DNA from: Clavelina lepadiformis
Lineage: Eukaryota; Chordata; Ascidiacea; Aplousobranchia; Clavelinidae
Length of the DNA stretch: 64,000 nt
Reading direction: 5' to 3'
Assembly: GCF_947623445.1 (NCBI RefSeq)
Contig: NC_135243.1
Location: forward strand, 19,290,479-19,354,478
The notes under the pieces are model-generated. The model did not search any database. It saw nothing but the letters and a program-made list of their open reading frames with translations, and was not told where the DNA came from. This document shows, piece by piece, positions 39,154 to 64,000 of this stretch. The position numbers and the translations under genes were made by a program. The first letter of the stretch is position 1. The number at the start of each line of letters is the position of its first letter.

Positions 39154-39161
39154 AGACTTGG

Positions 39162-39589: not shown

Positions 39590-39596
39590 ATGCACT

Positions 39597-39857: not shown

Positions 39858-40165
39858 TTGTTTGTTAAATGTCGCCATTAGACCATCTGTGAGCGGTAAA
39901 CGCCCTATCTTTGGACCAGTGAATAAAAGGCAATATTTTCACAATATTTAAACGTTGGAAATTTTTGACATTTTGAAGCATTTTCTAGCAACTTGGGAAT
40001 TCTTGTTTCAAAAATCTATTTGTGTAAGTTTTTCACGACGCATTTCTCCCTGTAAATAAAAAACAACCCTTAGTCCTTCCAAAACTTGTTTTTTAAGAAA
40101 TCGAAAATTTCTATTTCAGGGACTAATAATAATGAAAGCACTTATTCCAGGGAATTTAAAATTAA

Positions 40166-40236
40166 TGCATTGACAGGTAAGCGAATTCGGGCTTGCCGCG
40201 AGTCCGGCGTTAATTCTACCACTGAACCATCATTGC
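40166..40236 (-). pseudogene. tRNA-Gly-like partner, first array unit
   Basis: 71 nt starting GCAATGATGGTTCAGTGGTA. The 5' half including the A box matches tRNA-Gly; the B box has changed to AATTCGCTTACC and the anticodon stem no longer pairs. It is the least decayed Gly copy within the array proper. Confidence 0.7.
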
Positions 40237-40243
40237 ATGTACT

Positions 40244-40316
40244 TTCCCAGACCGGGAATCGAACCCGGGCCGCCTGGGTGAGAGGCCAGGAATCCTGACC
40301 ACTAGACCATCTGGAG
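40244..40316 (-). pseudogene. tRNA-Glu copy 1, extra base
   Basis: One extra base next to the anticodon loop and a changed 5' acceptor end (CCTCCAG for TCCCAGA). It sits at the array's left edge, where homogenisation is usually weakest. Confidence 0.7.
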
Positions 40317-40439
40317 GCTACGAAAGTCGTGTCTTTGGTCCAGTGAATAAAATGCGAAAACTTCACCATTCTTGAACGTTGAACATTTTACCATTTTGAA
40401 GTATTTTCTAGCAACTTGGGAATTCTTGTTTTAAGAGTC

Positions 40440-40659
40440 TATTTGTGTGAGTTTATCACGACGTATTCCTCCCTGTAAAATAACAACAACCCTTAGTCCT
40501 TCCAAAACTTGTTTTTTAGGAAATCAAAAATTTCTCATTTGGGGACTAACTTAATCATGAAAATATTTTTTCCAGCTAAATCAAAATTTATGCGTTGACA
40601 TGTTAGCGAATTCGGGCTGGCTGCGAGGCCGGCGTTAATTCTACCACTGAACTGTAAGA
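40440..40659 (-). repeat. Truncated unit without tRNA-Glu
   Basis: The unit breaks inside the Gly-like part (CCACTGAAC) and joins directly to the spacer (TGTAAGAGTCTATTTG), losing about 200 bp with the tRNA-Glu. The same junction recurs at about 42,975. Confidence 0.85.
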
Positions 40660-40886
40660 GTCTATTTGTGTGAGTTTATCACGACGTATTCCTCCCTGTA
40701 AAATAACAACAACCCTTAGTCCTTCCAAAACTTGTTTTTTAGGAAATCGAAAATTTCTCTTTTGGGGACTAATCATGAAAATATTTTTTCCAGCTAATTC
40801 AAAAGTAATGCATTGACAGGTAAGCGATTTCGAGCTGGCTGCGAGGCCGGCGTTAATTCTACCACTGAAGCAACATTGCATGCACT

Positions 40887-40958
40887 TTCCCAGACCGGGA
40901 ATCGGACCCGGGCCGCCTGGGTGAGAGCCAGGAATCCTGACCACTAGACCATCTGGGA
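40887..40958 (-). pseudogene. tRNA-Glu copy 2, T55C
   Basis: Clean CTC body except T55C, which alters the B box (GGTCCGATTCC). Residual activity is possible. Confidence 0.6.
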
Positions 40959-41220
40959 GCTACGACAGTCGTGTCTTTGGTCCATTCAATAAAATGCGAA
41001 AACTTCACCATTCTTAAACTTTGAAAATTTTACCATTTTGAAGTATTTTCTAGCAACTTGGGAATTCTTGTTTCAAGAGTCTATTTGTGTGAGTTTATCA
41101 CGACGTATTCCTCCCTGTAAGATAACAACAACCCTTAATCCTTCCAAAACTTGTTTATTAGGAAATCGAAAATTTCTCTTTTTTAGGACTAACAATGAAA
41201 ATATTTTTTCCAGCTAATTC

Positions 41221-41224
41221 AAAA
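41221..41224 (-). terminator. Pol III T4 terminator (representative)
   Basis: First TTTT on the minus strand after the Glu-Gly pair of the 41.3-kb unit. Every unit I checked has a T4 at this place although bases around it vary, and none lies between the two tRNA parts. Confidence 0.6.
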
Positions 41225-41228
41225 TCAA

Positions 41229-41299
41229 TGCATTGATAGGTAAGCGAATTCGGGCTGGCTTCGAGGCCGGCGTTAATTCTACCACTGAACCAACATTGC
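41229..41299 (-). pseudogene. tRNA-Gly-like partner (representative array copy)
   Basis: The A box TGGTTCAGTGG is intact. The anticodon arm, T arm and B box are degenerate and the acceptor stem pairs 5 of 7. Listed once as the model for all units. Confidence 0.65.
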
Positions 41300-41306
41300 A
41301 TGCACT

Positions 41307-41378
41307 TTCCCAGACCGGGAATCGAACCCGGGCCGCCTGGGTGAGAGCCAGGAATCCTGACCACTAGACCATCTGGGA
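41307..41378 (-). tRNA. tRNA-Glu (CTC), clean copy 3
   Basis: 72 nt. Acceptor TCCCAGA/TCTGGGA with discriminator A, A box TGGTCTAGTGG, anticodon stem CCTGG/CCAGG, loop CTCTCAC, T stem CCGGG/CCCGG, B box GGTTCGATTCC. All stems pair. The body closely follows animal tRNA-Glu-CTC. Confidence 0.93.
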
Positions 41379-41725
41379 GCTACGAAAGTCGTATCTTTGG
41401 TCCATTCAATAAAATGCGAAAACTTCACCATTCTTAAACGTTGAAAATTTTACCATTTTGAAGCATTTTCTAGCAACTTGGGAATTCTTGTTTCAAAAGT
41501 CTATTTGTGTGAGTTTATCACGACGTATTCCTCCCTGTAAAATAACAACAACCCTTAGTCCTTCCAAAACTTGTTTTTTAGGAAATCGAAAATTTCTCTT
41601 TTGGGGACTAATCATGAAAATATATTTTCCAGCTAATTTAAAATTAATGCATTGACATGTAAGCGAATTCGGGCTGGCTTCGAGGCCGGCGTTAATTCTA
41701 CCACTGAACCAACATTGCATGCACT

Positions 41726-41797
41726 TTCCCAGACCGGGAATCGAACCCGGGCCGCCTGGGTGAGAGCCAGTAATCTTGACCACTAGACCATCTGGGA
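41726..41797 (-). pseudogene. tRNA-Glu copy 4
   Basis: C27A breaks the top anticodon-stem pair and one D-stem base is changed; boxes A and B remain. Confidence 0.6.
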
Positions 41798-42144
41798 ACT
41801 ACGAAAGTCGTATCTTTGGTCCAGTCAATAATATGCGAAAACTTCACCGTTCTTAAACGTTGAAAATTTTACCATTTTGAAGCATTTTCTAGCAACTTGG
41901 GCATTCTTGTTTCAAGAGTCTATTTGTGTGAGTTTATCACGACATATTCCTCCCTGTAAAATAACAACAACCCTTAGTCCTTCCAAAACTTGTTTTTTAG
42001 GAAATCGAAAATTTCTCTTTTGGGGACTAATCATAAAAATATTTTTTCCAGCTAATTTAAAATTAATGCATTGACAGGTAAGCGAATTCGGGCTGGCTGC
42101 GAGGCCGGCGTTAATTCTACCACTGAACCAACATTGCATGCACT

Positions 42145-42216
42145 TTCCCAGACCGGAAAGCGAACCCGGGCCGCCTGGGTGAGAACCACTAATCCTGACC
42201 ACTAGACCATCTGGGA
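42145..42216 (-). pseudogene. tRNA-Glu copy 5, A58C
   Basis: A58C plus a T-stem change and two anticodon-stem mismatches (27 and 28). Confidence 0.7.
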
Positions 42217-42563
42217 ACTACGAAAGTCGTATCTTTGGTCCAGTGAATAAAATCCGAAAACTTCACCAATCTTAAACGTTGAAAATTTTACCAGTTTCAA
42301 GTATTTTCTAGCAACTTGGGAATTCTTGTTTCAACAGTCTATTTGTGTGAGTTTATCACGACATATTCCTCCCTGTAAAATAACAACAACCCTTAGTCCT
42401 TCCAAAACTTGTTTTTTAGGAAATCGAAAATTTCTCTTTTGGGGACTAATCATAAAAATATTTTTTCCAGCTAATTTAAAATTAATGCATTGACAGGTAA
42501 GCGAATTCGGGCTGGCTGCGAGGCCGGCGTTAATTCTACCACTGAACCAACATTGCATGCACT

Positions 42564-42635
42564 TTCCCAGACCGGAAAGCGAACCCGGGCCGCCTGGGTG
42601 AGAACCACTAATCCTGACCACTAGACCATCTGGGA
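42564..42635 (-). pseudogene. tRNA-Glu copy 6, A58C
   Basis: Same set of changes as copy 5, its direct neighbour, so the two units are a recent tandem duplicate. Confidence 0.7.
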
Positions 42636-42759
42636 ACTACGAAAGTCGTATCTTTGGTCCAGTGAATAAAATCCGAAAACTTCACCAATCTTAAACGTTG
42701 AAAATTTTACCATTTTGAAGTATTTTCTAGCAACTTGGGAATTCTTGTTTTAACAGTCT

Positions 42760-42978
42760 ATTTGTGTGAGTTTATCACGACGTATTCCTCCCTGTAAAAT
42801 AACAACAACCCTTAGTCCTTCCAAAACTTGTTTTTTAGGAAATCAAAAATTTCTCATTTGGGGACTAACTTAATCATGAAAATATTTTTTCCAGCTAAAT
42901 CAAAATTTATGCGTTGACATGTTAGCGAATTCGGGCTGGCTGCGAGGCCGGCGTTAATTCTACCACTGAACTGTAAGA
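42760..42978 (-). repeat. Second truncated unit without tRNA-Glu
   Basis: Same deletion junction as the truncated unit at 40.44-40.66 kb, 2,319 bp away. The following unit also matches, so a block was copied. Confidence 0.85.
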
Positions 42979-43205
42979 GTCTATTTGTGTGAGTTTATCA
43001 CGACGTATTCCTCCCTGTAAAATAACAACAACCCTTAGTCCTTCCAAAACTTGTTTTTTAGGAAATCGAAAATTTCTCTTTTGGGGACTAATCATGAAAA
43101 TATTTTTTCCAGCTAATTCAAAAGTAATGCATTGACAGGTAAGCGATTTCGAGCTGGCTGCGAAGCCGGCGTTAATTCTACCACTGAACCAACATTGCAT
43201 GCACT

Positions 43206-43277
43206 TTCCCAGACCGGGAATCGGACCCGGGCCGCCTGGGTGAGAGCCAGGAATCCTGACCACTAGACCATCTGGGA
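43206..43277 (-). pseudogene. tRNA-Glu copy 7, T55C
   Basis: T55C only; otherwise clean CTC. Confidence 0.6.
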
Positions 43278-43625
43278 GCTACGAAAGTCGTGTCTTTGGT
43301 CAATTCAATAAAATGCGAAAACTTCACCATTCTTAAACGTTGAAAATTTTACCATTTTGAAGTATTTTCTAGCAACTTGGGAATTCTTGTTTCAAGAGTC
43401 TATTTGTGTGAGTCTATCACGACATATTCCTCCCTGTAAAATAACAACAACCCTTAGTCCTTCCAAAACTTGTTTTTTAAGTAATCGAAAATTTCTCTTT
43501 TTTAGGACTAACAATGAAAATATTTTTTCCAGCTAATTCAAAATTAATGCATTGTTAGGTAAGCGAATTCGGGCTGGCTGCGAAGCCGGCGTTAATTCTA
43601 ACACTGAACCAACATTGCATGCACT

Positions 43626-43697
43626 TTTCCAGACTGGGAAGCGAACCCGGGCCGCCTGGGTGAGAACCAGTAATCCTGACCACTAGACCATCTGGGA
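43626..43697 (-). pseudogene. tRNA-Glu copy 8, A58C
   Basis: A58C, C27A, and acceptor and T-stem mismatches. Confidence 0.7.
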
Positions 43698-44043
43698 ACT
43701 ACGAAAGTCGTATCTTTGGTCCAGTCAATAATGTGCGAAAACTTCACCAATCTTAAACGTTGAAAATTTTACCATTTTGAAGTATTTTCTAGCAACTTGG
43801 GAATTCTTGTTTCAACAGTCTATTTGTGTGAGTTTATCACGACGTATTCCTCCCTGTAAAATAACAACAACCCTTAGTCCTTCCAAAACTTGTTTTTTAG
43901 AAATCGAAAATTTCTCTTTTGGGGACTAATCATGAAAATATTTTTTCCAGCTAATTCAAAAGTAATGCATTGACAGGTAAGCGATTTCGAGCTGGCTGCG
44001 AGGCCGGCGTTAATTCTACCACTGATGCAACATTGCATGCACT

Positions 44044-44115
44044 TTCCCAGACCGGGAATCGGATCCGGGCCGCCTGGGTGAGAGCCAGGAATCCTGCCCA
44101 CTAGACCATCTGGGA
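44044..44115 (-). pseudogene. tRNA-Glu copy 9
   Basis: T55C with further T-stem and D-loop changes. Confidence 0.7.
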
Positions 44116-44462
44116 GCTACGACAGTCGTGTCTTTGGTCCAGTGAATAATATGACAAAACTTCACCATTCTTAAACGTTGAAAATTTTACCATTTTGAAG
44201 CATTTTCTAGCAACTTGGGAATTCTTGTTTCAAGAGTCTATTTGTGTGAGTTTATCACGACATATTCCTCCCTGTAAAATAACAACAACCCTTAGTCCTT
44301 CCAAAACTTGTTTTTTAGGAAATCGAAAATTTCTCTTTTGGGGACTAATCATGAAAATATTTTTTCCAGCTAATTTAAAATTAATGCATTGACAGGTAAG
44401 CGAATTCGGGCTGGCTGCGAGGCCGGCGTTAACTCTAACACTGAACCAACATTGCATGCACT

Positions 44463-44534
44463 TTCCCAGACCGGGAATCGAACCCGGGCCGCCTGGGTGA
44501 GAGCCAGGAATCCTGACCACTAGACCATCTGGGA
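44463..44534 (-). tRNA. tRNA-Glu (CTC), clean copy 10
   Basis: Identical over 72 nt to the clean copy at 41,307. Confidence 0.93.
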
Positions 44535-44881
44535 GCTACGACAGTCGTGTCTTTGGTCCAGTGAATAATATGCGAAAACTTCACCATTCTTAAACGTTGA
44601 AAATTTTACCATTTTGAAGCATTTTCTAGCAACTTGGGAATTCTTGTTTCAAGAGTCTATTTGTGTGAGTTTATCACGACGTATTCCTCCCTGTGAAATA
44701 ACAACAACCTTTAGTCCTTCCAAAACTTGTTTTTTAGGAAATCGAAAATTTCTCTTTTGGGGACTAATCATGAAAATATATTTTCCAGCTAATTTAAAAT
44801 TAATGCATTGACATGTTAGCGAATTCGGGCTGGCTGCGAAGCCGGCGTTAATTCTACCACTGAACCAACATTGCATGCACT

Positions 44882-44953
44882 TTCCCAGACCGGGAAGCGA
44901 ACCCGGGCCGCCTGGGTGAGAACCAGTAATCCTGACCACTAGACCATCTGGGA
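44882..44953 (-). pseudogene. tRNA-Glu copy 11, A58C
   Basis: A58C and C27A; acceptor intact. Confidence 0.65.
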
Positions 44954-45300
44954 ACTACGAAAGTCGTATCTTTGGTCCAGTCAATAATGTGCGAAAACTT
45001 CACCAATCTTAAACGTTGAAAATTTTACCATTTTGAAGTATTTTCTAGCAACTTGGGAATTCTTGTTTCAAGAGTCTATTTGTGTGAGTTTATCACGACG
45101 TATTCCTCCCTGTAAAATAACAACAACCCTTAGTCCTTCCAAAACTTGTTTTTTAGGAAATCGAAAATTTCTCTTTTGGGGACTAATCATGAAAATATTT
45201 TTTCCAGCTAATTTAAAATTAATGCATTGACAGGTAAGCGAATTCGAGCTGGCTGCGAAGCCGGCGTTAATTCTACCACTGAACCAACATTGCATGCACT

Positions 45301-45372
45301 TTCCCAGACCGGGAATCGGACCCGGGCCGCCTGGGTGAGAGCCAGGAATCCTGACCACTAGACCATCTGGGA
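45301..45372 (-). pseudogene. tRNA-Glu copy 12, T55C
   Basis: T55C only. Confidence 0.6.
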
Positions 45373-45720
45373 GCTACGAAAGTCGTATCTTTGGTCCATT
45401 CAATAAAATGCGAAAACTTCACCATTCTTAAACGTTGAAAATTTACCATTTTGAAGTATTTTCTAGCAACTTGGGAATTCTTGTTTCAAGAGTCTATTTG
45501 TGTGAGTTTATCACGACATATTCCTCCCTGTAAAATAACAACAACCCTTAGTCCTTCCAAAACTTGTTTTTTAGGAAATCGAAAATATCTCTTTTTTAGT
45601 ACTAACAATGAAAATATTTTTTCCACCTAATTCAAAATTAATGCATTGATAGGTAAGCGATTTCGAGCTGGCTGCGAAGCCGGCGTTAATTCTAACACTG
45701 AACCAACATTGCATGCACTT

Positions 45721-45792
45721 TCCCCAGACCGGGAATCGAACCCGGGCCGCCTGGGTGAGAGCCAGGAATCCTGACCACTAGACCATCTGGGA
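45721..45792 (-). tRNA. tRNA-Glu (CTC), near-clean copy 13
   Basis: Clean body and both boxes; the 3' strand ends TCTGGGG, giving a T1-G wobble. Confidence 0.8.
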
Positions 45793-46139
45793 ACTACGAA
45801 AGTCGTGTCTTTGGTCCAGTGAATAATATGCGAAAACTTCACCATTCTTAAACGTTGAAAATTTTACCATTTTGAAGCATTTTCTAGCAACTTGGGAATT
45901 CTTGTTTCAAAAGTCTATTTGTGTGAGTTTATCACGACGTATTCCTCCCTGTAAAATAACAACAACCCTTAGTCCTTCCAAAACTTTTTTTTTAGGAAAT
46001 CGAAAATTTCTCTTTTGGGGACTAATAATGAAAATATTTTTTCCAGCTAATTTAAAATTAATGCATTGACAGGTAAGCGAATTCGGGCAGGCTGCGAGGC
46101 CGGCGTTAATTCTAACACTGAACCAACATTGCATGCACT

Positions 46140-46211
46140 TTCCCAGACTGGGAATCGAACCCGGGACGCCTGGGTGAGAGCCAGGAATCCTGACCACTAG
46201 ACCATCTGGGA
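46140..46211 (-). tRNA. tRNA-Glu (CTC), copy 14, one T-stem mismatch
   Basis: Changed variable loop (CGTC) and one T-stem mismatch; both boxes, anticodon arm and acceptor intact. May function. Confidence 0.6.
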
Positions 46212-46558
46212 ACTACGAAAGTCGTATCTTTGGTCCAGTGAATAAAATGCGAAAACTTCACCATTCTTAAACGTTGAAAATTTTACTATTTTGAAGCATT
46301 TTCAAGCAACTTGGGCATTCTTGTTTCAAAAGTCTATTTGTGTGAGTTTATCACAACGTATTCCTCCCTGTAAAATAACAACAACCCTTAGTCCTTCCAA
46401 AACTTGTTTTTTAGGAAATCGAAAATTTCTCTTTTGGGGACTAATAATGAAAATATTTTTTCCAGCTAATTTAAAATTAATGCATTGACATGTAAGCGAA
46501 TTCGGGCTGGCTGCGAGGCCGGCGTTAATTCTACCACTGAACCAACATTGCATGCACT

Positions 46559-46630
46559 TTTCCAGACCGGGAAGCGAACCCGGGCCGCCTGGGTGAGAAC
46601 CAGTAATCCTGACCACTAGACCATCTGGGA
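46559..46630 (-). pseudogene. tRNA-Glu copy 15, A58C
   Basis: A58C, C27A and an acceptor mismatch. Confidence 0.7.
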
Positions 46631-46979
46631 ACTACGAAAGTCGTATCTTTGGTCCAGTCAATAATGTGCGAAAACTTCACCAATCTTAAACGTTGAAAAT
46701 TTTACCATTTTGAAGTATTTTCTAGCAACTTGGGAATTCTTGTTTCAACAGTCTATTTGTGTGAGTTTATCACGACATATTCCTCCCTGTAAAATAACAA
46801 CAACCCTTAGTCCTCCCAAAACTTGTTTATTAGGAAATCGAAAATTTCTCTTTTTTAGGACTAACAATGAAAATATTTTTTCCAGCTAATTCAAAAGTAA
46901 TGCATTGACAGGTAAGCGATTTCGAGCTGGCTGCGAAGCCGGCGTTAATTCTAACACTGAACCAACATTGCATGCACTT

Positions 46980-47051
46980 TCCCCAGACCGGGAATCGAAC
47001 CCGGGCCGCCTGGGTGAGAGCCAGGAATCCTGACCACCAGACCATCTGGGA
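46980..47051 (-). pseudogene. tRNA-Glu copy 16, A14G
   Basis: A14G changes the invariant D-loop adenine and the A box; T1-G wobble. Confidence 0.6.
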
Positions 47052-47399
47052 ACTACGAAAGTCGTGTCTTTGGTCCAGTGAATAATATGCGAAAACTTCA
47101 CCATTCTTAAACGTTGAAAATTTTACCATTTTGAAACATTTTCTAGCAACTTGGGCATTCTTGTTTCAACAGTCTATTTGTGTGAGTCTATCACGACATA
47201 TTCCTCCCTGTAAAATAACAACAACCCTTAGTCCTTCCAAAACTTGTTTTTTAGGAAATCGAAAATTTCTCTTTTTTAGGACTAACAATGAAAATATTTT
47301 TTCCAGCTAATTCAAAATTAATGCATTGATAGGTAAGCGAATTCGGGCTGGCTGCGAGGCCGGCGTTAATTCTAACACTGAACCAACATTGCATGCACT

Positions 47400-47471
47400 T
47401 TCCCAGACCGGGAATCGAACCCGGGCCGCCTGGGTGAGAGCCAGTAATCCTGACCACTAGACCATATGGGA
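47400..47471 (-). pseudogene. tRNA-Glu copy 17
   Basis: C27A and an acceptor mismatch at position 6. Confidence 0.6.
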
Positions 47472-47818
47472 ACTACGAAAGTCGTGTCTTTGGTCCAGTG
47501 AATAAAATGCGAAAACTTCACCATTCTTAAACGTTGAAAATTTTACCATTTTGAAGCATTTTCTAGCAATTTGGGAATTCTTGTTTCAAAAGTCTATTTG
47601 TGTGAGTTTATCACGACGTATTCCTCCCTGTAAAATAACAACAACCCTTAGTCCTTCCAAAACTTGTTTTTTAGGAAATCGAAAATTTCTCTTTTGGGGA
47701 CTAATAATGAAAATATTTTTTCCAGCTAATTTAAAATTAATGCATTGACAGGTAAGCGAATTCGGGCTGGCTGCGAGGCCGGCGTTAATTCTAACACTGA
47801 ACCAACATTGCATGTACT

Positions 47819-47890
47819 TTCCCAGACTGGGAATCGAACACGGGACGCCTGGGTGAGAGCCAGGAATCCAGACCACTAGACCATCTGGGA
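47819..47890 (-). pseudogene. tRNA-Glu copy 18
   Basis: D-stem change and two T-stem mismatches. Confidence 0.7.
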
Positions 47891-48237
47891 ACTACGAAAG
47901 TCGTATCTTTGGTCCAGTGAATAAAATGCGAAAACTTCACCATTCTTAAACGTTGAAAATTTTACCATTTTGAAGCATTTTCTAGCAATTTGGGAATTCT
48001 TGTTTCAAAAGTCTATTTGTGTGAGTTTATCACGACGTATTCCTCCCTGTAAAATAACAACAACCCTTAGTCCTTCCAAAACTTGTTTTTTAGGAAATCG
48101 AAAATTTCTCTTTTGGGGACTAATCATAAAAATATTTTTTCCAGCTAATTTAAAATTAATGCATTGACAGGTAAGCGAATTCGGGCTGGCTGCGAGGCCG
48201 GCGTTAATTCTACCACTGAACCAACATTGCATGCACT

Positions 48238-48309
48238 TTCCCAGACCGGGAAGCGAACCCGGGCCGCCTGGGTGAGAACCACTAATCCTGACCACTAGAC
48301 CATCTGGGA
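48238..48309 (-). pseudogene. tRNA-Glu copy 19, A58C
   Basis: A58C with mismatches at 27 and 28. Confidence 0.7.
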
Positions 48310-48656
48310 ACTACGAAAGTCGTATCTTTGGTCCAGTGAATAAAATCCGAAAACTTCACCAATCTTAAACGTTGAAAATTTTACCAGTTTCAAGTATTTT
48401 CTAGCAACTTGGGAATTCTTGTTTCAACAGTCTATTTGTGTTAGTTTATCACGACGTATTCCTCCCTGTAAAATAACAACAACCCTTAGTCCTTCCAAAA
48501 CTTGTTTATTAGGAAATCGAAAATTTCTCTTTTGGGGACTAATCATGAAAATATTTTTTCCAGCTAATTCAAAAGTAATGCATTGACAGGTAAGCGATTT
48601 CGAGCTGGCTGCGAGGCCGGCGTTAATTCTACCACTGAACCAACATTGCATGCACT

Positions 48657-48728
48657 TTCCCAGACCGGGAATCGGACCCGGGCCGCCTGGGTGAGAGCCA
48701 GGAATCCTGACCACTAGACCATCTGGGA
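48657..48728 (-). pseudogene. tRNA-Glu copy 20, T55C
   Basis: T55C only. Confidence 0.6.
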
Positions 48729-49076
48729 GCTACGAAAGTCGTGTCTTTGGTCAATTCAATAAAATGCGAAAACTTCACCATTCTTAAACGTTGAAAATTT
48801 TACCATTTTGAAGTATTTTCTAGCAACTTGGGAATTCTTGTTTCAAGAGTCTATTTGTGTGAGTCTATCACGACATATTCCTCCCTGTAAAATAACAACA
48901 ACCCTTAGTCCTTCCAAAACTTGTTTTTTAAGAAATCGAAAATTTCTCTTTTTTAGGACTAACAATGAAAATATTTTTTCCAGCTAATTCAAAAGTAATG
49001 CATTGACAGGTAAGCGATTTCGAGCTGGCTGCGAGGCCGGCGTTAATTCTACCACTGATGCAACATTGCATGCACT

Positions 49077-49148
49077 TTCCCAGACCGGGAATCGGACCCG
49101 GGCCGCCTGGGTGAGAGCCAGGAATCCTGCCCACTAGACCATCTGGGA
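49077..49148 (-). pseudogene. tRNA-Glu copy 21, T55C
   Basis: T55C plus a D-loop change. This unit is the one missing from the otherwise matching block 3.8 kb to the right. Confidence 0.65.
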
Positions 49149-49496
49149 GCTACGACAGTCGTGTCTTTGGTCCAGTGAATAATATGACAAAACTTCACCA
49201 TTCTTAAACGTTGAAAATTTTACCATTTTGAAGCATTTTCTAGCAACTTGGGAATTCTTGTTTCAAGAGTCTATTTGTGTGAGTTTATCACGACATATTC
49301 CTCCCTGTAAAATAACAACAACCCTTAGTCCTTCCAAAACTTGTTTATTAGGAAATCGAAAATTTCTCTTTTTTAGGACTAACAATGAAAATATTTTTTC
49401 CAGCTAATTCAAAATTAATGCATTGATAGGTAAGCGAATTCGGGCTGGCTGCGAAGCCGGCGTTAATTCTAACACTGAACCAACATTTCATGCACT

Positions 49497-49568
49497 TTCC
49501 CAGACCGGGAATCGAACCCGGGCCGCCTGGGTGAGAGCCAGGAATCCTGACCACTAGACCATCTGGGA
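49497..49568 (-). tRNA. tRNA-Glu (CTC), clean copy 22
   Basis: Identical to the clean copy at 41,307; the unit carries a TTTCATGC marker just downstream. Confidence 0.93.
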
Positions 49569-49915
49569 ACTACGAAAGTCGTGTCTTTGGTCCAGTGAAT
49601 AATATGCGAAAACTTCACCATTCTTAAACGTTGAAAATTTTACCATTTTGAAGCATTTTCTAGCAATTTGGGAATTCTTGTTTCAAAAGTCTATTTGTGT
49701 GAGTTTATCACGACGTATTCCTCTCTGTAAAATAACAACAACCCTTAGTCCTTCCAAAACTTGTTTTTTAGGAAATCGAAAATTTCTCTTTTGGGGACTA
49801 ATAATGAAAATATTTTTTCCAGCTAATTTAAAATTAATGCATTGACATGTAAGCGAATTCGGGCTGGCTGCGAGGCCGGCGTTAATTCTACCACTGAACC
49901 AACATTGCATGCACT

Positions 49916-54182: not shown

Positions 54183-54530
54183 ACTACGAAAGTCGTATCT
54201 TTGGTCCAGTCAATAATGTGCGAAAACTTCACCAATCTTAAACGTTGAAAATTTTACCATTTTGAAGTATTTTCTAGCAACTTGGGAATTCTTGTTTCAA
54301 GAGTCTATTTGTGTGAGTTTATCACGACGTATTCCTCCCTGTAAAATAACAACAACCCTTAGTCCTTCCAAAACTTGTTTTTTAGGAAATCGAAAATATC
54401 TCTTTTTTAGTACTAACAATGAAAATATTTTTTCCACCTAATTCAAAATTAATGCATTGATAGGTAAGCGAATTCGGGCTGGCTGCGAAGCCGCCGTTAA
54501 TTCTAACACTGAACCAACATTTCATGCACT

Positions 54531-54602
54531 TTCCCAGACCGGGAATCGAACCCGGGCCGCCTGGGTGAGAGCCAGGAATCCTGACCACTAGACCATCTGG
54601 GA
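54531..54602 (-). tRNA. tRNA-Glu (CTC), clean copy 34
   Basis: Clean over 72 nt; its unit straddles the boundary between the two 5,034-bp blocks. Confidence 0.93.
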
Positions 54603-54949
54603 ACTACGAAAGTCGTGTCTTTGGTCCAGTGAATAATATGCGAAAACTTCACCATTCTTAAACGTTGAAAATTTTACCATTTTGAAGCATTTTCTAGCAA
54701 TTTGGGAATTCTTGTTTCAAAAGTCTATTTGTGTGAGTTTATCACGACGTATTCCTCTCTGTAAAATAACAACAACCCTTAGTCCTTCCAAAACTTGTTT
54801 TTTAGGAAATCGAAAATTTCTCTTTTGGGGACTAATAATGAAAATATTTTTTCCAGCTAATTTAAAATTAATGCATTGACATGTAAGCGAATTCGGGCTG
54901 GCTGCGAGGCCGGCGTTAATTCTACCACTGAACCAACATTGCATGCACT

Positions 54950-55021
54950 TTTCCAGACCGGGAAGCGAACCCGGGCCGCCTGGGTGAGAACCAGTAATCC
55001 TGACCACTAGACCATCTGGGA
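54950..55021 (-). pseudogene. tRNA-Glu copy 35, A58C
   Basis: As copy 23, one 5,034-bp period away. Confidence 0.7.
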
Positions 55022-55369
55022 ACTACGAAAGTCGTATCTTTGGTCCAGTCAATAATGTGCGAAAACTTCACCAATCTTAAACGTTGAAAATTTTACCATT
55101 TTGAAGTATTTTCTAGCAACTTGGGAATTCTTGTTTCAACAGTCTATTTGTGTGAGTTTATCACGACGTATTCCTCCCTGTAAAATAACAACAACCCTTA
55201 GTCCTTCCAAAACTTGTTTATTAGGAAATCGAAAATTTCTCTTTCTTAGGACTAACAATGAAAATATTTTTTCCAGCTAATTCAAAAGTAATGCATTGAC
55301 AGGTAAGCGATTTCGAGCTGGCTGCGAAGCCGGCGTTAATTCTAACACTGAACCAACATTGCATGCACT

Positions 55370-55441
55370 TTCCCAGACCGGGAATCGAACCCGGGCCGCT
55401 TGGGTGAGAGCCAGGAATCCTGACCACTAGACCATCTGGGA
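55370..55441 (-). tRNA. tRNA-Glu (CTC), copy 36, one stem mismatch
   Basis: As copy 24: C-A mismatch at 28-42. Confidence 0.6.
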
Positions 55442-55790
55442 GCTACGAAAGTCGTGTCTTTGGTCCATTCAATAAAATGCGAAAACTTCACCATTCTTAA
55501 ACGTTGAAAATTTTACCATTTTGAAGTATTTTCTAGCAACTTGGGAATTCTTGTTTCAAGAGTCTATTTGTGTGAGTTTATCACGACATATTCCTCCCTG
55601 TAAAATAACAACAACCCTTAGTCCTCCCAAAACTTGTTTATTAGGAAATCGAAAATTTCTCTTTTTTAGGACTAACAATGAAAATATTTTTTCCAGCTAA
55701 TTCAAAAGTAATGCATTGACAGGTAAGCGATTTCGAGCTGGCTGCGAAGCCGGCGATAATTCTAACACTGAACCAACATTGCATGCACTT

Positions 55791-55862
55791 TCCCCAGACC
55801 GGGAATCGAACCCGGGCCGCCTGGGTGAGAGCCAGGAATCCTGACCACCAGACCATCTGGGA
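55791..55862 (-). pseudogene. tRNA-Glu copy 37, A14G
   Basis: As copy 25. Confidence 0.6.
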
Positions 55863-56210
55863 ACTACGAAAGTCGTGTCTTTGGTCCAGTGAATAATATG
55901 CGAAAACTTCACCATTCTTAAACGTTGAAAATTTTACCATTTTGAAACATTTTCTAGCAACTTGGGCATTCTTGTTTCAACAGTCTATTTGTGTGAGTCT
56001 ATCACGACATATTCCTCCCTGTAAAATAACAACAACCCTTAGTCCTTCCAAAACTTGTTTTTTAGGAAATCGAAAATTTCTCTTTTTTAGGACTAACAAT
56101 GAAAATATTTTTTCCAGCTAATTCAAAATTAATGCATTGATAGGTAAGCGAATTCGGGCTGGCTGCGAGGCCGGCGTTAATTCTAACACTGAACCAACAT
56201 TGCATGCACT

Positions 56211-56282
56211 TTCCCAGACCGGGAATCGAACCCGGGCCGCCTGGGTGAGAGCCAGTAATCCTGACCACTAGACCATATGGGA
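56211..56282 (-). pseudogene. tRNA-Glu copy 38
   Basis: As copy 26. Confidence 0.6.
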
Positions 56283-56629
56283 ACTACGAAAGTCGTGTCT
56301 TTGGTCCAGTGAATAAAATGCGAAAACTTCACCATTCTTAAACGTTGAAAATTTTACCATTTTGAAGCATTTTCTAGCAATTTGGGAATTCTTGTTTCAA
56401 AAGTCTATTTGTGTGAGTTTATCACGACGTATTCCTCCCTGTAAAATAACAACAACCCTTAGTCCTTCCAAAACTTGTTTTTTAGGAAATCGAAAATTTC
56501 TCTTTTGGGGACTAATAATGAAAATATTTTTTCCAGCTAATTTAAAATTAATGCATTGACAGGTAAGCGAATTCGGGCTGGCTGCGAGGCCGGCGTTAAT
56601 TCTAACACTGAACCAACATTGCATGTACT

Positions 56630-56701
56630 TTCCCAGACTGGGAATCGAACACGGGACGCCTGGGTGAGAGCCAGGAATCCAGACAACTAGACCATCTGGG
56701 A
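56630..56701 (-). pseudogene. tRNA-Glu copy 39
   Basis: As copy 27 with one further D-loop change at 56,685. Confidence 0.7.
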
Positions 56702-57048
56702 ACTACGAAAGTCGTATCTTTGGTCCAGTGAATAAAATGCGAAAACTTCACCATTCTTAAACGTTGAAAATTTTACCATTTTGAAGCATTTTCTAGCAAT
56801 TTGGGAATTCTTGTTTCAAAAGTCTATTTGTGTGAGTTTATCACGACGTATTCCTCCCTGTAAAATAACAACAACCCTTAGTCCTTCCAAAACTTGTTTT
56901 TTAGGAAATCGAAAATTTCTCTTTTGGGGACTAATCATAAAAATATTTTTTCCAGCTAATTTAAAATTAATGCATTGACAGGTAAGCGAATTCGGGCTGG
57001 CTGCGAGGCCGGCGTTAATTCTACCACTGAACCAACATTGCATGCACT

Positions 57049-57120
57049 TTCCCAGACCGGGAAGCGAACCCGGGCCGCCTGGGTGAGAACCACTAATCCT
57101 GACCACTAGACCATCTGGGA
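57049..57120 (-). pseudogene. tRNA-Glu copy 40, A58C
   Basis: As copy 28. Confidence 0.7.
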
Positions 57121-57467
57121 ACTACGAAAGTCGTATCTTTGGTCCAGTGAATAAAATCCGAAAACTTCACCAATCTTAAACGTTGAAAATTTTACCAGTT
57201 TCAAGTATTTTCTAGCAACTTGGGAATTCTTGTTTCAACAGTCTATTTGTGTTAGTTTATCACGACGTATTCCTCCCTGTAAAATAACAACAACCCTTAG
57301 TCCTTCCAAAACTTGTTTATTAGGAAATCGAAAATTTCTCTTTTGGGGACTAATCATGAAAATATTTTTTCCAGCTAATTCAAAAGTAATGCATTGACAG
57401 GTAAGCGATTTCGAGCTGGCTGCGAGGCCGGCGTTAATTCTACCACTGAACCAACATTGCATGCACT

Positions 57468-57539
57468 TTCCCAGACCGGGAATCGGACCCGGGCCGCCTG
57501 GGTGAGAGCCAGGAATCCTGACCACTAGACCATCTGGGA
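57468..57539 (-). pseudogene. tRNA-Glu copy 41, T55C
   Basis: As copy 29. Confidence 0.6.
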
Positions 57540-57887
57540 GCTACGAAAGTCGTGTCTTTGGTCAATTCAATAAAATGCGAAAACTTCACCATTCTTAAAC
57601 GTTGAAAATTTTACCATTTTGAAGTATTTTCTAGCAACTTGGGAATTCTTGTTTCAAGAGTCTATTTGTGTGAGTCTATCACGACATATTCCTCCCTGTA
57701 AAATAACAACAACCCTTAGTCCTTCCAAAACTTGTTTTTTAAGAAATCGAAAATTTCTCTTTTTTAGGACTAACAATGAAAATATTTTTTCCAGCTAATT
57801 CAAAATTAATGCATTGATAGGTAAGCGAATTCGGGCTGGCTGCGAAGCCGGCGTTAATTCTAACACTGAACCAACATTTCATGCACT

Positions 57888-57959
57888 TTCCCAGACCGGG
57901 AATCGAACCCGGGCCGCCTGGGTGAGAGCCAGGAATCCTGACCACTAGACCATCTGGGA
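57888..57959 (-). tRNA. tRNA-Glu (CTC), clean copy 42
   Basis: Identical to copy 30, one 5,034-bp period away. Confidence 0.93.
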
Positions 57960-58306
57960 ACTACGAAAGTCGTGTCTTTGGTCCAGTGAATAATATGCGA
58001 AAACTTCACCATTCTTAAACGTTGAAAATTTTACCATTTTGAAGCAATTTCTAGCAATTTGGGAATTCTTGTTTCAAAAGTCTATTTGTGTGAGTTTATC
58101 ACGACGTATTCCTCTCTGTAAAATAACAACAACCCTTAGTCCTTCCAAAACTTGTTTTTTAGGAAATCGAAAATTTCTCTTTTGGGGACTAATAATGAAA
58201 ATATTTTTTCCAGCTAATTTAAAATTAATGCATTGACAGGTAAGCGAATTCGGGCAGGCTGCGAGGCCGGCGTTAATTCTAACACTGAACCAACATTGCA
58301 TGCACT

Positions 58307-58378
58307 TTCCCAGATTGGGAATCGAACCCGGGACGCCTGCGTGAGAGCCAGGAATCCTGACCACTAGACCATCTGGGA
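58307..58378 (-). pseudogene. tRNA-Glu copy 43
   Basis: As copy 31. Confidence 0.65.
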
Positions 58379-58725
58379 ACTACGAAAGTCGTATCTTTGG
58401 TCCAGTGAATAAAATGCGAAAACTTCACCATTCTTAAACGTTGAAAATTTTACCATTTTGAAGCATTTTCAAGCAACTTGGGCATTCTTGTTTCAAAAGT
58501 CTATTTGTGTGAGTTTATCACAACGTATTCCTCCCTGTAAAATAACAACAACCCTTAGTCCTTCCAAAACTTGTTTTTTAGGAAATCGAAAATTTCTCTT
58601 TTGGGGACTAATCATGAAAATATTTTTTCCAGCTAATTTAAAATTAATGCATTGACAGGTAAGCGAATTCGGGCTGGCTGCGAGGCCGGCGTTAACTCTA
58701 ACACTGAACCAACATTGCATGCACT

Positions 58726-58797
58726 TTCCCAGACCGGGAATCGAACCCGGGCCGCCTGGGTGAGAGCCAGGAATCCTGACCACTAGACCATCTGGGA
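58726..58797 (-). tRNA. tRNA-Glu (CTC), clean copy 44
   Basis: Identical to copy 32, one 5,034-bp period away. Confidence 0.93.
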
Positions 58798-59144
58798 GCT
58801 ACGACAGTCGTGTCTTTGGTCCAGTGAATAATATGCGAAAACTTCACCATTCTTAAACGTTGAAAATTTTACCATTTTGAAGCATTTTCTAGCAACTTGG
58901 GAATTCTTGTTTCAAGAGTCTATTTGTGTGAGTTTATCACGACGTATTCCTCCCTGTGAAATAACAACAACCTTTAGTCCTTCCAAAACTTGTTTTTTAG
59001 GAAATCGAAAATTTCTCTTTTGGGGACTAATCATGAAAATATATTTTCCAGCTAATTTAAAATTAATGCATTGACATGTTAGCGAATTCGGGCTGGCTGC
59101 GAAGCCGGCGTTAATTCTACCACTGAACCAACATTGCATGCACT

Positions 59145-59216
59145 TTCCCAGACCGGGAAGCGAACCCGGGCCGCCTGGGTGAGAACCAGTAATCCTGACC
59201 ACTAGACCATCTGGGA
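59145..59216 (-). pseudogene. tRNA-Glu copy 45, A58C
   Basis: As copy 33. Confidence 0.65.
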
Positions 59217-59565
59217 ACTACGAAAGTCGTATCTTTGGTCCAGTCAATAATGTGCGAAAACTTCACCAATCTTAAACGTTGAAAATTTTACCATTTTGAA
59301 GTATTTTCTAGCAACTTGGGAATTCTTGTTTCAAGAGTCTATTTGTGTGAGTTTATCACGACGTATTCCTCCCTGTAAAATAACAACAACCCTTAGTCCT
59401 TCCAAAACTTGTTTTTTAGGAAATCGAAAATATCTCTTTTTTAGTACTAACAATGAAAATATTTTTTCCACCTAATTCAAAATTAATGCATTGATAGGTA
59501 AGCGATTTCGAGCTGGCTGCGAAGCCGGCGTTAATTCTAACACTGAACCAACATTGCATGCACTT

Positions 59566-59637
59566 TCCCCAGACCGGGAATCGAACCCGGGCCGCCTGGG
59601 TGAGAGCCAGGAATCCTGACCACTAGACCATCTGGGA
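59566..59637 (-). tRNA. tRNA-Glu (CTC), near-clean copy 46
   Basis: Clean except for the T1-G wobble, as copy 13. Confidence 0.8.
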
Positions 59638-59984
59638 ACTACGAAAGTCGTGTCTTTGGTCCAGTGAATAATATGCGAAAACTTCACCATTCTTAAACGT
59701 TGAAAATTTTACCATTTTGAAGCATTTTCTAGCAACTTGGGAATTCTTGTTTCAAAAGTCTATTTGTGTGAGTTTATCACGACGTATTCCTCCCTGTAAA
59801 ATAACAACAACCCTTAGTCCTTTCAAAACTTTTTTTTTAGGAAATCGAAAATTTCTCTTTTGGGGACTAATAATGAAAATATTTTTTCCAGCTAATTTAA
59901 AATTAATGCATTGACAGGTAAGCGAATTCGGGCAGGCTGCGAGGCCGGCGTTAATTCTAACACTGAACCAACATTGCATGCACT

Positions 59985-60056
59985 TTCCCAGACTGGGAAT
60001 CGAACCCGGGACGCCTGGGTGAGAGCCAGGAATCCTGACCACTAGACCATCTGGGA
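59985..60056 (-). tRNA. tRNA-Glu (CTC), copy 47, one T-stem mismatch
   Basis: As copy 14. Confidence 0.6.
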
Positions 60057-60403
60057 ACTACGAAAGTCGTATCTTTGGTCCAGTGAATAAAATGCGAAAA
60101 CTTCACCATTCTTAAACGTTGAAAATTTTACTATTTTGAAGCATTTTCAAGCAACTTGGGCATTCTTGTTTCAAAAGTCTATTTGTGTGAGTTTATCACA
60201 ACGTATTCCTCCCTGTAAAATAACAACAACCCTTAGTCCTTCCAAAACTTGTTTTTTAGGAAATCGAAAATTTCTCTTTTGGGGACTAATAATGAAAATA
60301 TTTTTTCCAGCTAATTTAAAATTAATGCATTGACATGTAAGCGAATTCGGGCTGGCTGCGAGGCCGGCGTTAATTCTACCACTGAACCAACATTGCATGC
60401 ACT

Positions 60404-60475
60404 TTTCCAGACCGGGAAGCGAACCCGGGCCGCCTGGGTGAGAACCAGTAATCCTGACCACTAGACCATCTGGGA
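60404..60475 (-). pseudogene. tRNA-Glu copy 48, A58C
   Basis: As copy 15; upstream hairpin altered (GTCGAATC on the plus strand). Confidence 0.7.
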
Positions 60476-60823
60476 ACTACGAAAGTCGAATCTTTGGTCC
60501 AGTCAATAATGTGCGAAAACTTCACCAATCTTAAACGTTGAAAATTTTACCATTTTGAAGTATTTTCTAGCAACTTGGGAATTCTTGTTTCAAGAGTCTA
60601 TTTGTGTGAGTTTATCACGACGTATTCCTCCCTGTAAAATAACAACAACCCTTAGTCCTTCCAAAACTTGTTTATTAGGAAATCGAAAATTTCTCTTTCT
60701 TAGGACTAACAATGAAAATATTTTTTCCAGCTAATTCAAAAGTAATGCATTGACAGGTAAGCGATTTCGAGCTGGCTGCGAAGCCGGCGTTAATTCTAAC
60801 ACTGAACCAACATTGCATGCACT

Positions 60824-60895
60824 TTCCCAGACCGGGAATCGAACCCGGGCCGCCTGGGTGAAAGCCAGGAATCCTGACCACTAGACCATCTGGGA
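60824..60895 (-). tRNA. tRNA-Glu (TTC), anticodon switched, copy 49
   Basis: The loop reads CTTTCAC, so the anticodon is TTC, decoding GAA. Every other base matches the clean CTC copy, with all stems and both boxes intact. Confidence 0.9.
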
Positions 60896-61244
60896 GCTAC
60901 GAAAGTCGTGTCTTTGGTCCATTCAATAAAATGCGAAAACTTCACCATTCTTAAACGTTGAAAATTTTACCATTTTGAAGTATTTTCTAGCAACTTGGGA
61001 ATTCTTGTTTCAAGAGTCTATTTGTGTGAGTTTATCACGACATATTCCTCCCTGTAAAATAACAACAACCCTTAGTCCTCCCAAAACTTGTTTATTAGGA
61101 AATCGAAAATTTCTCTTTTTTAGGACTAACAATGAAAATATTTTTTCCAGCTAATTCAAAAGTAATGCATTGACAGGTAAGCGATTTCGAGCTGGCTGCG
61201 AAGCCGGCGTTAATTCTAACACTGAACCAACATTGCATGCACTT

Positions 61245-61316
61245 TCCCCAGACCGGGAATCGAACCCGGGCCGCCTGGGTGAGAGCCAGGAATCCTGACC
61301 ACCAGACCATCTGGGA
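61245..61316 (-). pseudogene. tRNA-Glu copy 50, A14G
   Basis: As copy 25. Confidence 0.6.
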
Positions 61317-61664
61317 ACTACGAAAGTCGTGTCTTTGGTCCAGTGAATAATATGCGAAAACTTCACCATTCTTAAACGTTGAAAAGTTTACCATTTTGAA
61401 ACATTTTCTAGCAACTTGGGCATTCTTGTTTCAACAGTCTATTTGTGTGAGTCTATCACGACATATTCCTCCCTGTAAAATAACAACAACCCTTAGTCCT
61501 TCCAAAACTTGTTTTTTAGGAAATCGAAAATTTCTCTTTTTTAGGACTAACAATGAAAATATTTTTTCCAGCTAATTCAAAATTAATGCATTGATAGGTA
61601 AGCGAATTCGGGCTGGCTGCGAGGCCGGCGTTAATTCTAACACTGAACCAACATTGCATGCACT

Positions 61665-61736
61665 TTCCCAGACCGGGAATCGAACCCGGGCCGCCTGGGT
61701 GAGAGCCAGGAATCCTGACCACTAGACCATATGGGA
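61665..61736 (-). tRNA. tRNA-Glu (CTC), copy 51, acceptor mismatch
   Basis: A single acceptor mismatch at position 6; the anticodon stem is repaired relative to copy 26, suggesting partial conversion. Confidence 0.6.
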
Positions 61737-62083
61737 ACTACGAAAGTCGTGTCTTTGGTCCATTCAATAAAATGCGAAAACTTCACCATTCTTAAACGTT
61801 GAAAATTTTACCATTTTGAAGTATTTTCTAGCAACTTGGGCATTCTTGTTTCAAAAGTCTATTTGTGTGAGTTTATCACGACGTATTCCTCCCTGTAAAA
61901 TAACAACAACCCTTAGTCCTTTCAAAACTTTTTTTTTAGGAAATCGAAAATTTCTCTTTTGGGGACTAATAATGAAAATATTTTTTCCAGCTAATTTAAA
62001 ATTAATGCATTGACAGGTAAGCGAATTCGGGCAGGCTGCGAGGCCGGCGTTAATTCTAACACTGAACCAACATTGCATGCACT

Positions 62084-62155
62084 TTCCCAGACTGGGAATC
62101 GAACCCGGGACGCCTGGGTGAGAGCCAGGAATCCTGACCACTAGACCATCTGGGA
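62084..62155 (-). tRNA. tRNA-Glu (CTC), copy 52, one T-stem mismatch
   Basis: As copy 47, one 2,099-bp period away. Confidence 0.6.
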
Positions 62156-62502
62156 ACTACGAAAGTCGTATCTTTGGTCCAGTGAATAAAATGCGAAAAC
62201 TTCACCATTCTTAAACGTTGAAAATTTTACTATTTTGAAGCATTTTCAAGCAACTTGGGCATTCTTGTTTCAAAAGTCTATTTGTGTGAGTTTATCACAA
62301 CGTATTCCTCCCTGTAAAATAACAACAACCCTTAGTCCTTCCAAAACTTGTTTTTTAGGAAATCGAAAATTTCTCTTTTGGGGACTAATAATGAAAATAT
62401 TTTTTCCAGCTAATTTAAAATTAATGCATTGACATGTAAGCGAATTCGGGCTGGCTGCGAGGCCGGCGTTAATTCTACCACTGAACCAACATTGCATGCA
62501 CT

Positions 62503-62574
62503 TTTCCAGACCGGGAAGCGAACCCGGGCCGCCTGGGTGAGAACCAGTAATCCTGACCACTAGACCATCTGGGA
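62503..62574 (-). pseudogene. tRNA-Glu copy 53, A58C
   Basis: As copy 48, including the altered upstream hairpin. Confidence 0.7.
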
Positions 62575-62922
62575 ACTACGAAAGTCGAATCTTTGGTCCA
62601 GTCAATAATGTGCGAAAACTTCACCAATCTTAAACGTTGAAAATTTTACCATTTTGAAGTATTTTCTAGCAACTTGGGAATTCTTGTTTCAAGAGTCTAT
62701 TTGTGTGAGTTTATCACGACGTATTCCTCCCTGTAAAATAACAACAACCCTTAGTCCTTCCAAAACTTGTTTATTAGGAAATCGAAAATTTCTCTTTCTT
62801 AGGACTAACAATGAAAATATTTTTTCCAGCTAATTCAAAAGTAATGCATTGACAGGTAAGCGATTTCGAGCTGGCTGCGAAGCCGGCGTTAATTCTAACA
62901 CTGAACCAACATTGCATGCACT

Positions 62923-62994
62923 TTCCCAGACCGGGAATCGAACCCGGGCCGCCTGGGTGAAAGCCAGGAATCCTGACCACTAGACCATCTGGGA
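62923..62994 (-). tRNA. tRNA-Glu (TTC), anticodon switched, copy 54
   Basis: Second TTC copy, identical to copy 49 and one 2,099-bp period away. Confidence 0.9.
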
Positions 62995-63343
62995 GCTACG
63001 AAAGTCGTGTCTTTGGTCCATTCAATAAAATGCGAAAACTTCACCATTCTTAAACGTTGAAAATTTTACCATTTTGAAGTATTTTCTAGCAACTTGGGAA
63101 TTCTTGTTTCAAGAGTCTATTTGTGTGAGTTTATCACGACATATTCCTCCCTGTAAAATAACAACAACCCTTAGTCCTCCCAAAACTTGTTTATTAGGAA
63201 ATCGAAAATTTCTCTTTTTTAGGACTAACAATGAAAATATTTTTTCCAGCTAATTCAAAAGTAATGCATTGACAGGTAAGCGATTTCGAGCTGGCTGCGA
63301 AGCCGGCGTTAATTCTAACACTGAACCAACATTGCATGCACTT

Positions 63344-63415
63344 TCCCCAGACCGGGAATCGAACCCGGGCCGCCTGGGTGAGAGCCAGGAATCCTGACCA
63401 CCAGACCATCTGGGA
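63344..63415 (-). pseudogene. tRNA-Glu copy 55, A14G
   Basis: As copy 50. Confidence 0.6.
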
Positions 63416-63763
63416 ACTACGAAAGTCGTGTCTTTGGTCCAGTGAATAATATGCGAAAACTTCACCATTCTTAAACGTTGAAAAGTTTACCATTTTGAAA
63501 CATTTTCTAGCAACTTGGGCATTCTTGTTTCAACAGTCTATTTGTGTGAGTCTATCACGACATATTCCTCCCTGTAAAATAACAACAACCCTTAGTCCTT
63601 CCAAAACTTGTTTTTTAGGAAATCGAAAATTTCTCTTTTTTAGGACTAACAATGAAAATATTTTTTCCAGCTAATTCAAAATTAATGCATTGATAGGTAA
63701 GCGAATTCGGGCTGGCTGCGAGGCCGGCGTTAATTCTAACACTGAACCAACATTGCATGCACT

Positions 63764-63835
63764 TTCCCAGATTGGGAATCGAACCCGGGACGCCTGCGTG
63801 AGAGCCAGGAATCCTGACCACTAGACCATCTGGGA
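63764..63835 (-). pseudogene. tRNA-Glu copy 56
   Basis: As copy 31; here the 2,099-bp periodicity breaks and the unit switches to the 53.3/58.3-kb type. Confidence 0.65.
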
Positions 63836-64000
63836 ACTACGAAAGTCGTATCTTTGGTCCAGTGAATAAAATGCGAAAACTTCACCATTCTTAAACGTTG
63901 AAAATTTTACTATTTTGAAGCATTTTCAAGCAACTTGGGCATTCTTGTTTCAAAAGTCTATTTGTGTGAGTTTATCACAACGTATTCCTCCCTGTAAAAT

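What the first reader, a model, noticed from the sequence alone, without database searches (positions are those of the whole stretch)
39880..64000. Mega-array of tRNA-Glu genes: at least 56 copies in 24 kb, one strand, open at the right edge
A 419-420-bp unit carrying tRNA-Glu is repeated head to tail to the end of the window, so the true array is longer. About 12 of the 56 in-array copies look clean or nearly clean (8 CTC, 2 near-clean CTC, 2 TTC) and a few more have a single mismatch. Tandem tDNA arrays are known in a few animals (for example zebrafish and Xenopus), but one dominated by a single Glu isoacceptor with this unit is notable. It might supply tRNA-Glu in bulk at some stage, be a source of tRNA fragments, or be satellite-like DNA that happens to contain a tRNA.
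Basis: partly seen in the sequence, partly recalled or inferred. Interest (0 to 1): 0.85.

Follow-up and report, generated by a model that had tools for sequence, protein, structure and literature searches.

The report
Tandem tRNA-Glu gene array, partly decayed
An animal-like genome carries an 87-kilobase row of about 207 copies of one glutamate tRNA gene, apparently descended from a glutamate-glycine tRNA gene pair by a one-letter change in the anticodon; it is a striking but not unprecedented kind of tRNA gene array, and many of its copies look damaged.

Summary
The window holds 56 tRNA loci (53 Glu-CTC, 2 Glu-TTC, 1 unassigned) on the minus strand in 419-421-bp units. The array continues about 64 kb beyond the window and ends: 207 in-register copies over about 87 kb (C4:19330722-19418039). 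The unit is more than a Glu gene: 7 nt downstream lies a decayed tRNA-Gly(GCC), then TTTT. The same genome has intact Glu(TTC)-Gly(GCC) pairs, singly (C1, C5) and in another array (C7). The C4 Glu differs from the commonest C7 Glu(TTC) at one base, in the anticodon (TTC to CTC), while the relic Gly and the spacer differ by 22% and 26%. So the array most likely came from a Glu(TTC)-Gly pair by an isoacceptor anticodon shift, loss of Gly and block-wise amplification. 50 of 205 copies are perfect; 82 of 205 carry changes at core T-loop positions; within the array the Glu gene is no less variable than its spacer. It is a tRNA array evolving like a satellite, with a minority of perfect genes. Tandem tRNA arrays are known (Entamoeba, human 1q23.3, Arabidopsis, Hydractinia, Nematostella). 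Bulk tRNA supply is possible but untested.

The parts
40656..64000 (-). Regular part of the tRNA-Glu(CTC) array inside the window, 419-421-bp units with one irregular spacing of 642; continues to C4:19418039
38914..40655 (.). Degraded left edge: diverged, partly inverted unit fragments, a relic Glu at 39597 and a weak tRNA at 40244-40316
41307..41378 (-). Representative perfect-consensus tRNA-Glu(CTC) gene
   Evidence: 63.7 bits Rfam; sequence shown
41228..41299 (-). Relic tRNA-Gly(GCC) of the same unit, 7 nt downstream of Glu (consensus unit positions 80-151)
   Evidence: Consensus 56 of 72 identical to the intact Gly of a C7 unit; coordinates derived from the unit positions, so good to a base or two
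41221..41224 (-). First TTTT after Glu (unit position 155), presumed Pol III stop
   Evidence: First TTTT at position 155 in 190 of 205 units, at 156 in 11, elsewhere in 4
60824..60895 (-). tRNA-Glu(TTC) copy, in a unit identical to that at 62923
62923..62994 (-). tRNA-Glu(TTC) copy

Best explanation
The feature is a tandem tRNA gene array that arose from a closely linked tRNA-Glu(TTC)-tRNA-Gly(GCC) pair like those elsewhere in this genome. One copy underwent a one-base anticodon shift TTC to CTC (difference shown; direction inferred), its Gly partner decayed about as fast as the spacer (shown against one C7 unit), and the unit was amplified to about 207 copies by duplication of units and of blocks up to 12 units (near-identical blocks shown; unequal exchange inferred). 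A minority of copies remain perfect genes with internal Pol III promoter boxes and a T-stretch, so the array probably still adds to the tRNA-Glu(CTC) pool that decodes GAG (inferred), but selection does not visibly hold individual copies, and most of the array evolves as a satellite.
For: Extent and unit. Relic Gly 7 nt after Glu and first TTTT at 155-156 in 201 of 205 units. Intact Glu(TTC)-Gly(GCC) pairs, 5-6 nt apart by ARAGORN's ends, in the C7 array and on C1 and C5. The C4 consensus Glu differs at 1 of 72 bases, anticodon base 34, from the Glu(TTC) form seen in 5 of the 8 C7 copies read; the one C6 Glu(CTC) gene read differs at 4 and the C1/C5 Glu(TTC) at 6. Against one C7 unit (gap columns left out) Glu is 70 of 72, the relic Gly 56 of 72 and the rest 188 of 254 identical; with the common C7 Glu (71 of 72) Glu against spacer p 2.4e-7, Gly against spacer p 0.64. 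Within the array Glu pi 0.043, spacer 0.041; 42 of 72 Glu sites and 87 of 262 spacer sites vary (p 0.0002 raw); 50 of 205 perfect; 100 of 205 keep all 17 stem pairs scored (D stem not scored), with no double (compensating) change seen; 82 of 205 changed at T54/U55/C56/A58. Near-identical blocks: 12 units at lag 41, 11 at lag 12, 9 at lag 10.
Against: No expression data. The control is weak: in 24 units of the C9 Lys/Leu/Leu array tRNA sites are somewhat less variable than spacer (23 of 238 against 123 of 942), but not significantly (p 0.19; G/C sites p 0.59; only A/T sites p 0.004), and by pi Lys (0.008) is low while Leu(AAG) (0.034) is near spacer (0.036). The Glu identity between C4 and C7 could come from gene conversion rather than long selection. 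The spacer comparison used one C7 unit. The direction of the anticodon change is inferred from TTC in the other Glu-Gly pairs read. Copy number could not be checked by read depth.
Confidence: 0.75

Rival explanations
1. Selected bulk-supply array: copy number is kept high because tRNA-Glu(CTC) is needed in quantity at some stage, as with the Arabidopsis Ser/Tyr/Tyr cluster active in root-cap cells. (This and the next rival concern present function, not origin.)
For: 50 of 205 perfect copies; an exact anticodon-arm pattern of the C6 Glu(CTC) gene finds only 4 such genes, all on C6 (other Glu(CTC) forms would be missed). Low-copy variants are enriched in Glu and in the stretch to the terminator against base-matched spacer (28 seen, 17.9 expected, p 0.0012; 25 seen, 15.9 expected, p 0.0033), which transcription-linked mutation could cause. 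Arabidopsis precedent PMC12308677 (abstract and outline).
Against: Glu is no better conserved than spacer; perfect Glu copies (53 by aligned columns, 50 raw) are no more common than perfect 72-nt spacer windows (median 63, range 3-129). In local blocks of 24 units the excess of variants at G/C sites is seen in only 4 of 16 blocks, though at A/T sites in 16 of 16.
Confidence: 0.3
2. Silent satellite: the array is heterochromatic and not transcribed; the tRNA is a passenger.
For: Gene no less variable than spacer, decayed edge, block duplications.
Against: 96 of 205 copies keep both A and B boxes, and the Glu consensus is 71 of 72 identical to the Glu of a diverged array.
Confidence: 0.25
3. tRNA-derived SINE or other dispersed transposon that became tandem.
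For: Contains a Pol III promoter.
Against: A whole-genome search with a 495-base piece (48 matches, 25 of 27 candidates scored) found the spacer only in C4 and C7, including one 108-base piece at C7:4013771; the other places match only the tRNA or Glu-Gly part. That tool skips very common words, so this is not proof of rarity.
Confidence: 0.03
4. Assembly expansion of a short array.
For: 93 identical unit pairs and near-identical blocks.
Against: 147 distinct units of 205, no N in the 264 kb, diverged edge.
Confidence: 0.07

Closest known systems
tRNA tandem arrays of Hydractinia and Nematostella (PMC11067881, passages)
   Different: The passages read mention no anticodon-shifted single-isoacceptor array with a relic partner gene; its supplements were not read
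Entamoeba tRNA arrays (PMC2652664, start of abstract in listing)
   Same: tRNA genes in tandem units
   Different: There almost all tRNA genes are in arrays, and units hold up to 5 genes with short repeats between them
Human 1q23.3 tRNA VNTR (PMC4041453, abstract and outline)
   Same: Tandem repeat that contains tRNA genes
   Different: 7.3-kb GC-rich unit, 9-43 copies per allele, CTCF site
Arabidopsis Ser/Tyr/Tyr cluster (PMC12308677, abstract and outline)
   Same: Tandem tRNA cluster expanded by duplication
   Different: Two amino acids; silenced in most tissues but shown active in root-cap cells; no such data here
Isoacceptor anticodon shifts (PMC3923123, abstract and passages)
   Same: Change at the first anticodon base, the usual place for such shifts (39 of 44 there); Glu is among those with a shift lacking strongly covarying changes
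   Different: That study mapped shifts among syntenic genes; here the shifted gene was amplified about 200-fold

Membership tests
Tandem tRNA gene array | Head-to-tail repeats each holding tRNA gene(s) | tested here: met
Tandem tRNA gene array | tRNA loci score as tRNAs | tested here: met
   56 Rfam hits in the window and 151 in L009-L016 at or above the gathering score
Tandem tRNA gene array | Transcribed by Pol III | not testable with these tools
   no expression data
Isoacceptor anticodon shift | Gene closest to one isoacceptor but bearing another anticodon | tested here: met
   1 of 72 from the common C7 Glu(TTC), 4 of 72 from the C6 Glu(CTC) read; direction of change not tested
Closely linked (dicistronic) Glu-Gly gene pair | Both tRNAs intact, a few bases apart | tested here: not met
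   Gly is a relic in the C4 consensus; intact pairs elsewhere support ancestry only
tRNA-derived SINE | Dispersed copies | tested here: not met
   within the limits of that search
Satellite-like evolution | Gene not less variable than spacer; block duplication | tested here: met

The most novel reading that the evidence does not exclude
A one-base anticodon shift created a second kind of tRNA-Glu(CTC) that was then amplified to about 200 genes, against 4 found of the C6 kind, so that the array now sets the GAG-decoding tRNA supply (or a tRNA-fragment supply) at some life stage, and its heavy transcription raises mutation across the transcribed stretch.
Probability: 0.2. Interest if true: 0.6.

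Novelty: new member of a known kind. Interest (0 to 1): 0.38.

Why it matters
It shows, inside one genome, steps of tRNA gene birth and decay: an intact two-gene pair, an array of such pairs, and a derived array with a switched anticodon and a dead partner. About 200 copies with internal spacers as control make the array usable to test whether transcription raises mutation in tRNA genes.

Tried and rejected
Species not identified: the SSU rRNA family search failed three times; COX1 gave no match and GFP none (whose own note says that this does not show absence); an 18S pattern (recalled, not from a call) hit 7 places but no letters could be cut out. A count of 53 perfect copies was corrected to 50, because the alignment columns hid insertions. 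The excess of variants in Glu was first read as transcription-linked mutation; the block test weakened it, so it is only suggestive. The C9 array, which I had meant as a clear control, turned out to be a weak one. The variants are mostly not conversion from other Glu genes: of 53 minor alleles 2 match C6, 3 match C1 and 1 matches C7. Thornlow et al. 2018 was not held; I know it here only from a passage and reference in PMC8113476.

Full report
Observation. ARAGORN and Rfam each find 56 tRNA loci in the window, all on the minus strand; TRF gives a 419-bp period. The window is C4:19290479-19354478 of a 209-Mb genome in 95 contigs. I fetched the next 200 kb and joined it to the window. The array continues for about 64 kb and ends at about C4:19418039: 207 ungapped Glu matches from 40888 to 127490 in joined coordinates, spacing 418-421 except one of 642, plus a relic at 39597. 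ARAGORN lists 207 loci in the 264 kb: 203 Glu-CTC, 2 Glu-TTC, 1 Lys-CTT and 1 unassigned. Rfam reports 151 beyond the window. The left edge fades through diverged and inverted pieces back to about 38.9 kb.

Anatomy. From 205 full units (the one spacing of abnormal length inside the array dropped, and the first copy, which has no regular neighbour to its left) the consensus is 419 bases: tRNA-Glu(CTC) of 72 nt, 7 nt, a sequence aligning without gaps to tRNA-Gly(GCC) over 72 bases, first TTTT at position 155 in 190 of 205 units, at 156 in 11 and elsewhere in 4, then about 260 bases of AT-rich spacer. A transcript started on Glu would be expected to run through the relic Gly (inference).

Origin. 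A whole-genome search with a 495-base piece gave 48 matches, 25 of 27 candidates scored: the C4 array, a C7 array at 75% identity, and places matching only the tRNA or Glu-Gly part. Of the regions I then read (9 stretches), the C7 units (about 1408 bp) hold Glu(TTC), 6 nt, Gly(GCC) and Ile(AAT), in places Phe; C1 and C5 hold Glu(TTC), 5 nt, Gly(GCC) pairs, though in two of the three C5 pieces ARAGORN called only the Gly; the one C6 gene read is a lone Glu(CTC). The C4 consensus Glu differs at 1 of 72 bases, anticodon base 34, from the form in 5 of 8 C7 copies; from the C6 Glu(CTC) at 4 and from the C1/C5 Glu at 6. Against one C7 unit the relic Gly matches at 56 of 72 and the remainder at 188 of 254, gap columns left out: Gly diverged like spacer (p 0.64), Glu did not (p 2.4e-7). 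An exact anticodon-arm pattern finds 4 genes of the C6 kind; other Glu(CTC) forms were not counted.

Present state. Perfect Glu: 50 of 205. A and B boxes both intact: 96 of 205; B box 104 of 205; all 17 scored stem pairs intact: 100 of 205 (66 lack one, 30 two, 9 three); no double stem change. T54/U55/C56/A58 changed: 82 of 205 (position names recalled). Diversity: Glu pi 0.043, spacer 0.041; variable sites 42 of 72 against 87 of 262. With bases matched, 42 compares with 33.9 expected (p 0.011), and low-copy variants are 28 against 17.9 expected (p 0.0012); but in 16 local blocks the G/C-site excess is seen in only 4, the A/T-site excess in all 16. So there is no sign that individual copies are protected, and only a hint of a raised mutation rate. 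The C9 array is a weak contrast: tRNA 23 of 238 sites variable against spacer 123 of 942 in 24 units, p 0.19 overall, 0.59 at G/C sites and 0.004 at A/T sites. Block structure: pairs of units differ by 18.1 columns on average, and by 16.1 to 19.4 at lags 1 to 40, with near-identical blocks up to 12 units.

Setting. The genome has 3,289 exact matches to a B-box pattern against 134 for the reversed control, a Lys/Leu/Leu array on C9 (62 of the 63 scored tRNA hits lie on C9), the C7 array, and regularly spaced B boxes on C1 near 25.0 Mb (not read). Arrays thus recur in this genome. The species was not identified; an animal is likely from CCDC14, a Tc5-type transposase and a NACHT gene nearby, which is inference.

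Known kinds. Tandem tRNA arrays are in print for Entamoeba, human, Arabidopsis and two cnidarian genera, and more than 17,000 tRNA genes and pseudogenes for Nematostella (PMC2888827, passages). Isoacceptor shifts are in print (PMC3923123). I did not see this combination in the listings of searches, which cover one open-licence library only and were not all aimed at it. Verdict: a new member of a known kind, with an unusually legible history.

Noticed in passing
G000 C9, hits at about 4.937-4.951 Mb and 5.054-5.170 Mb (L001-L008, L042-L044): tRNA array with a 1180-bp unit of Lys(TTT), Leu(AAG) and Leu(TAG), minus strand; pi of Lys 0.008, of spacer 0.036 in 24 units
   Followed up: partly
L033, L034 (C7:10276000-10292999), L035: Array of about 1408-bp units with Glu(TTC)-Gly(GCC), Ile(AAT) and in places Phe(GAA); Glu-Gly 6 nt apart, Ile-Phe 5 nt apart, suggesting shared transcripts
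   Followed up: partly
G000 C1:24981666-25008497 and perhaps beyond (listing cut): Regularly spaced B boxes (differences such as 665 and 1328 bp), probably another tRNA array; sequence not read
   Followed up: no
window 13325-14956 +: Open 543-codon frame of a Tc5/pogo-like transposase (HTH_Tnp_Tc5 and DDE_1)
   Followed up: partly
window 8356-9993 +: CCDC14-like coiled-coil frame (Pfam CCDC14)
   Followed up: partly
L015:8749-9387 + and L016:5274-6617 -: Fructosamine-kinase-like and NACHT-domain frames to the right of the array
   Followed up: partly
window 40244-40887 and 42563-43206: Both irregular spacings are exactly 643 bp by ARAGORN's starts (one unit plus about 224 bp), as if the same partial unit was inserted or duplicated twice
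   Followed up: no
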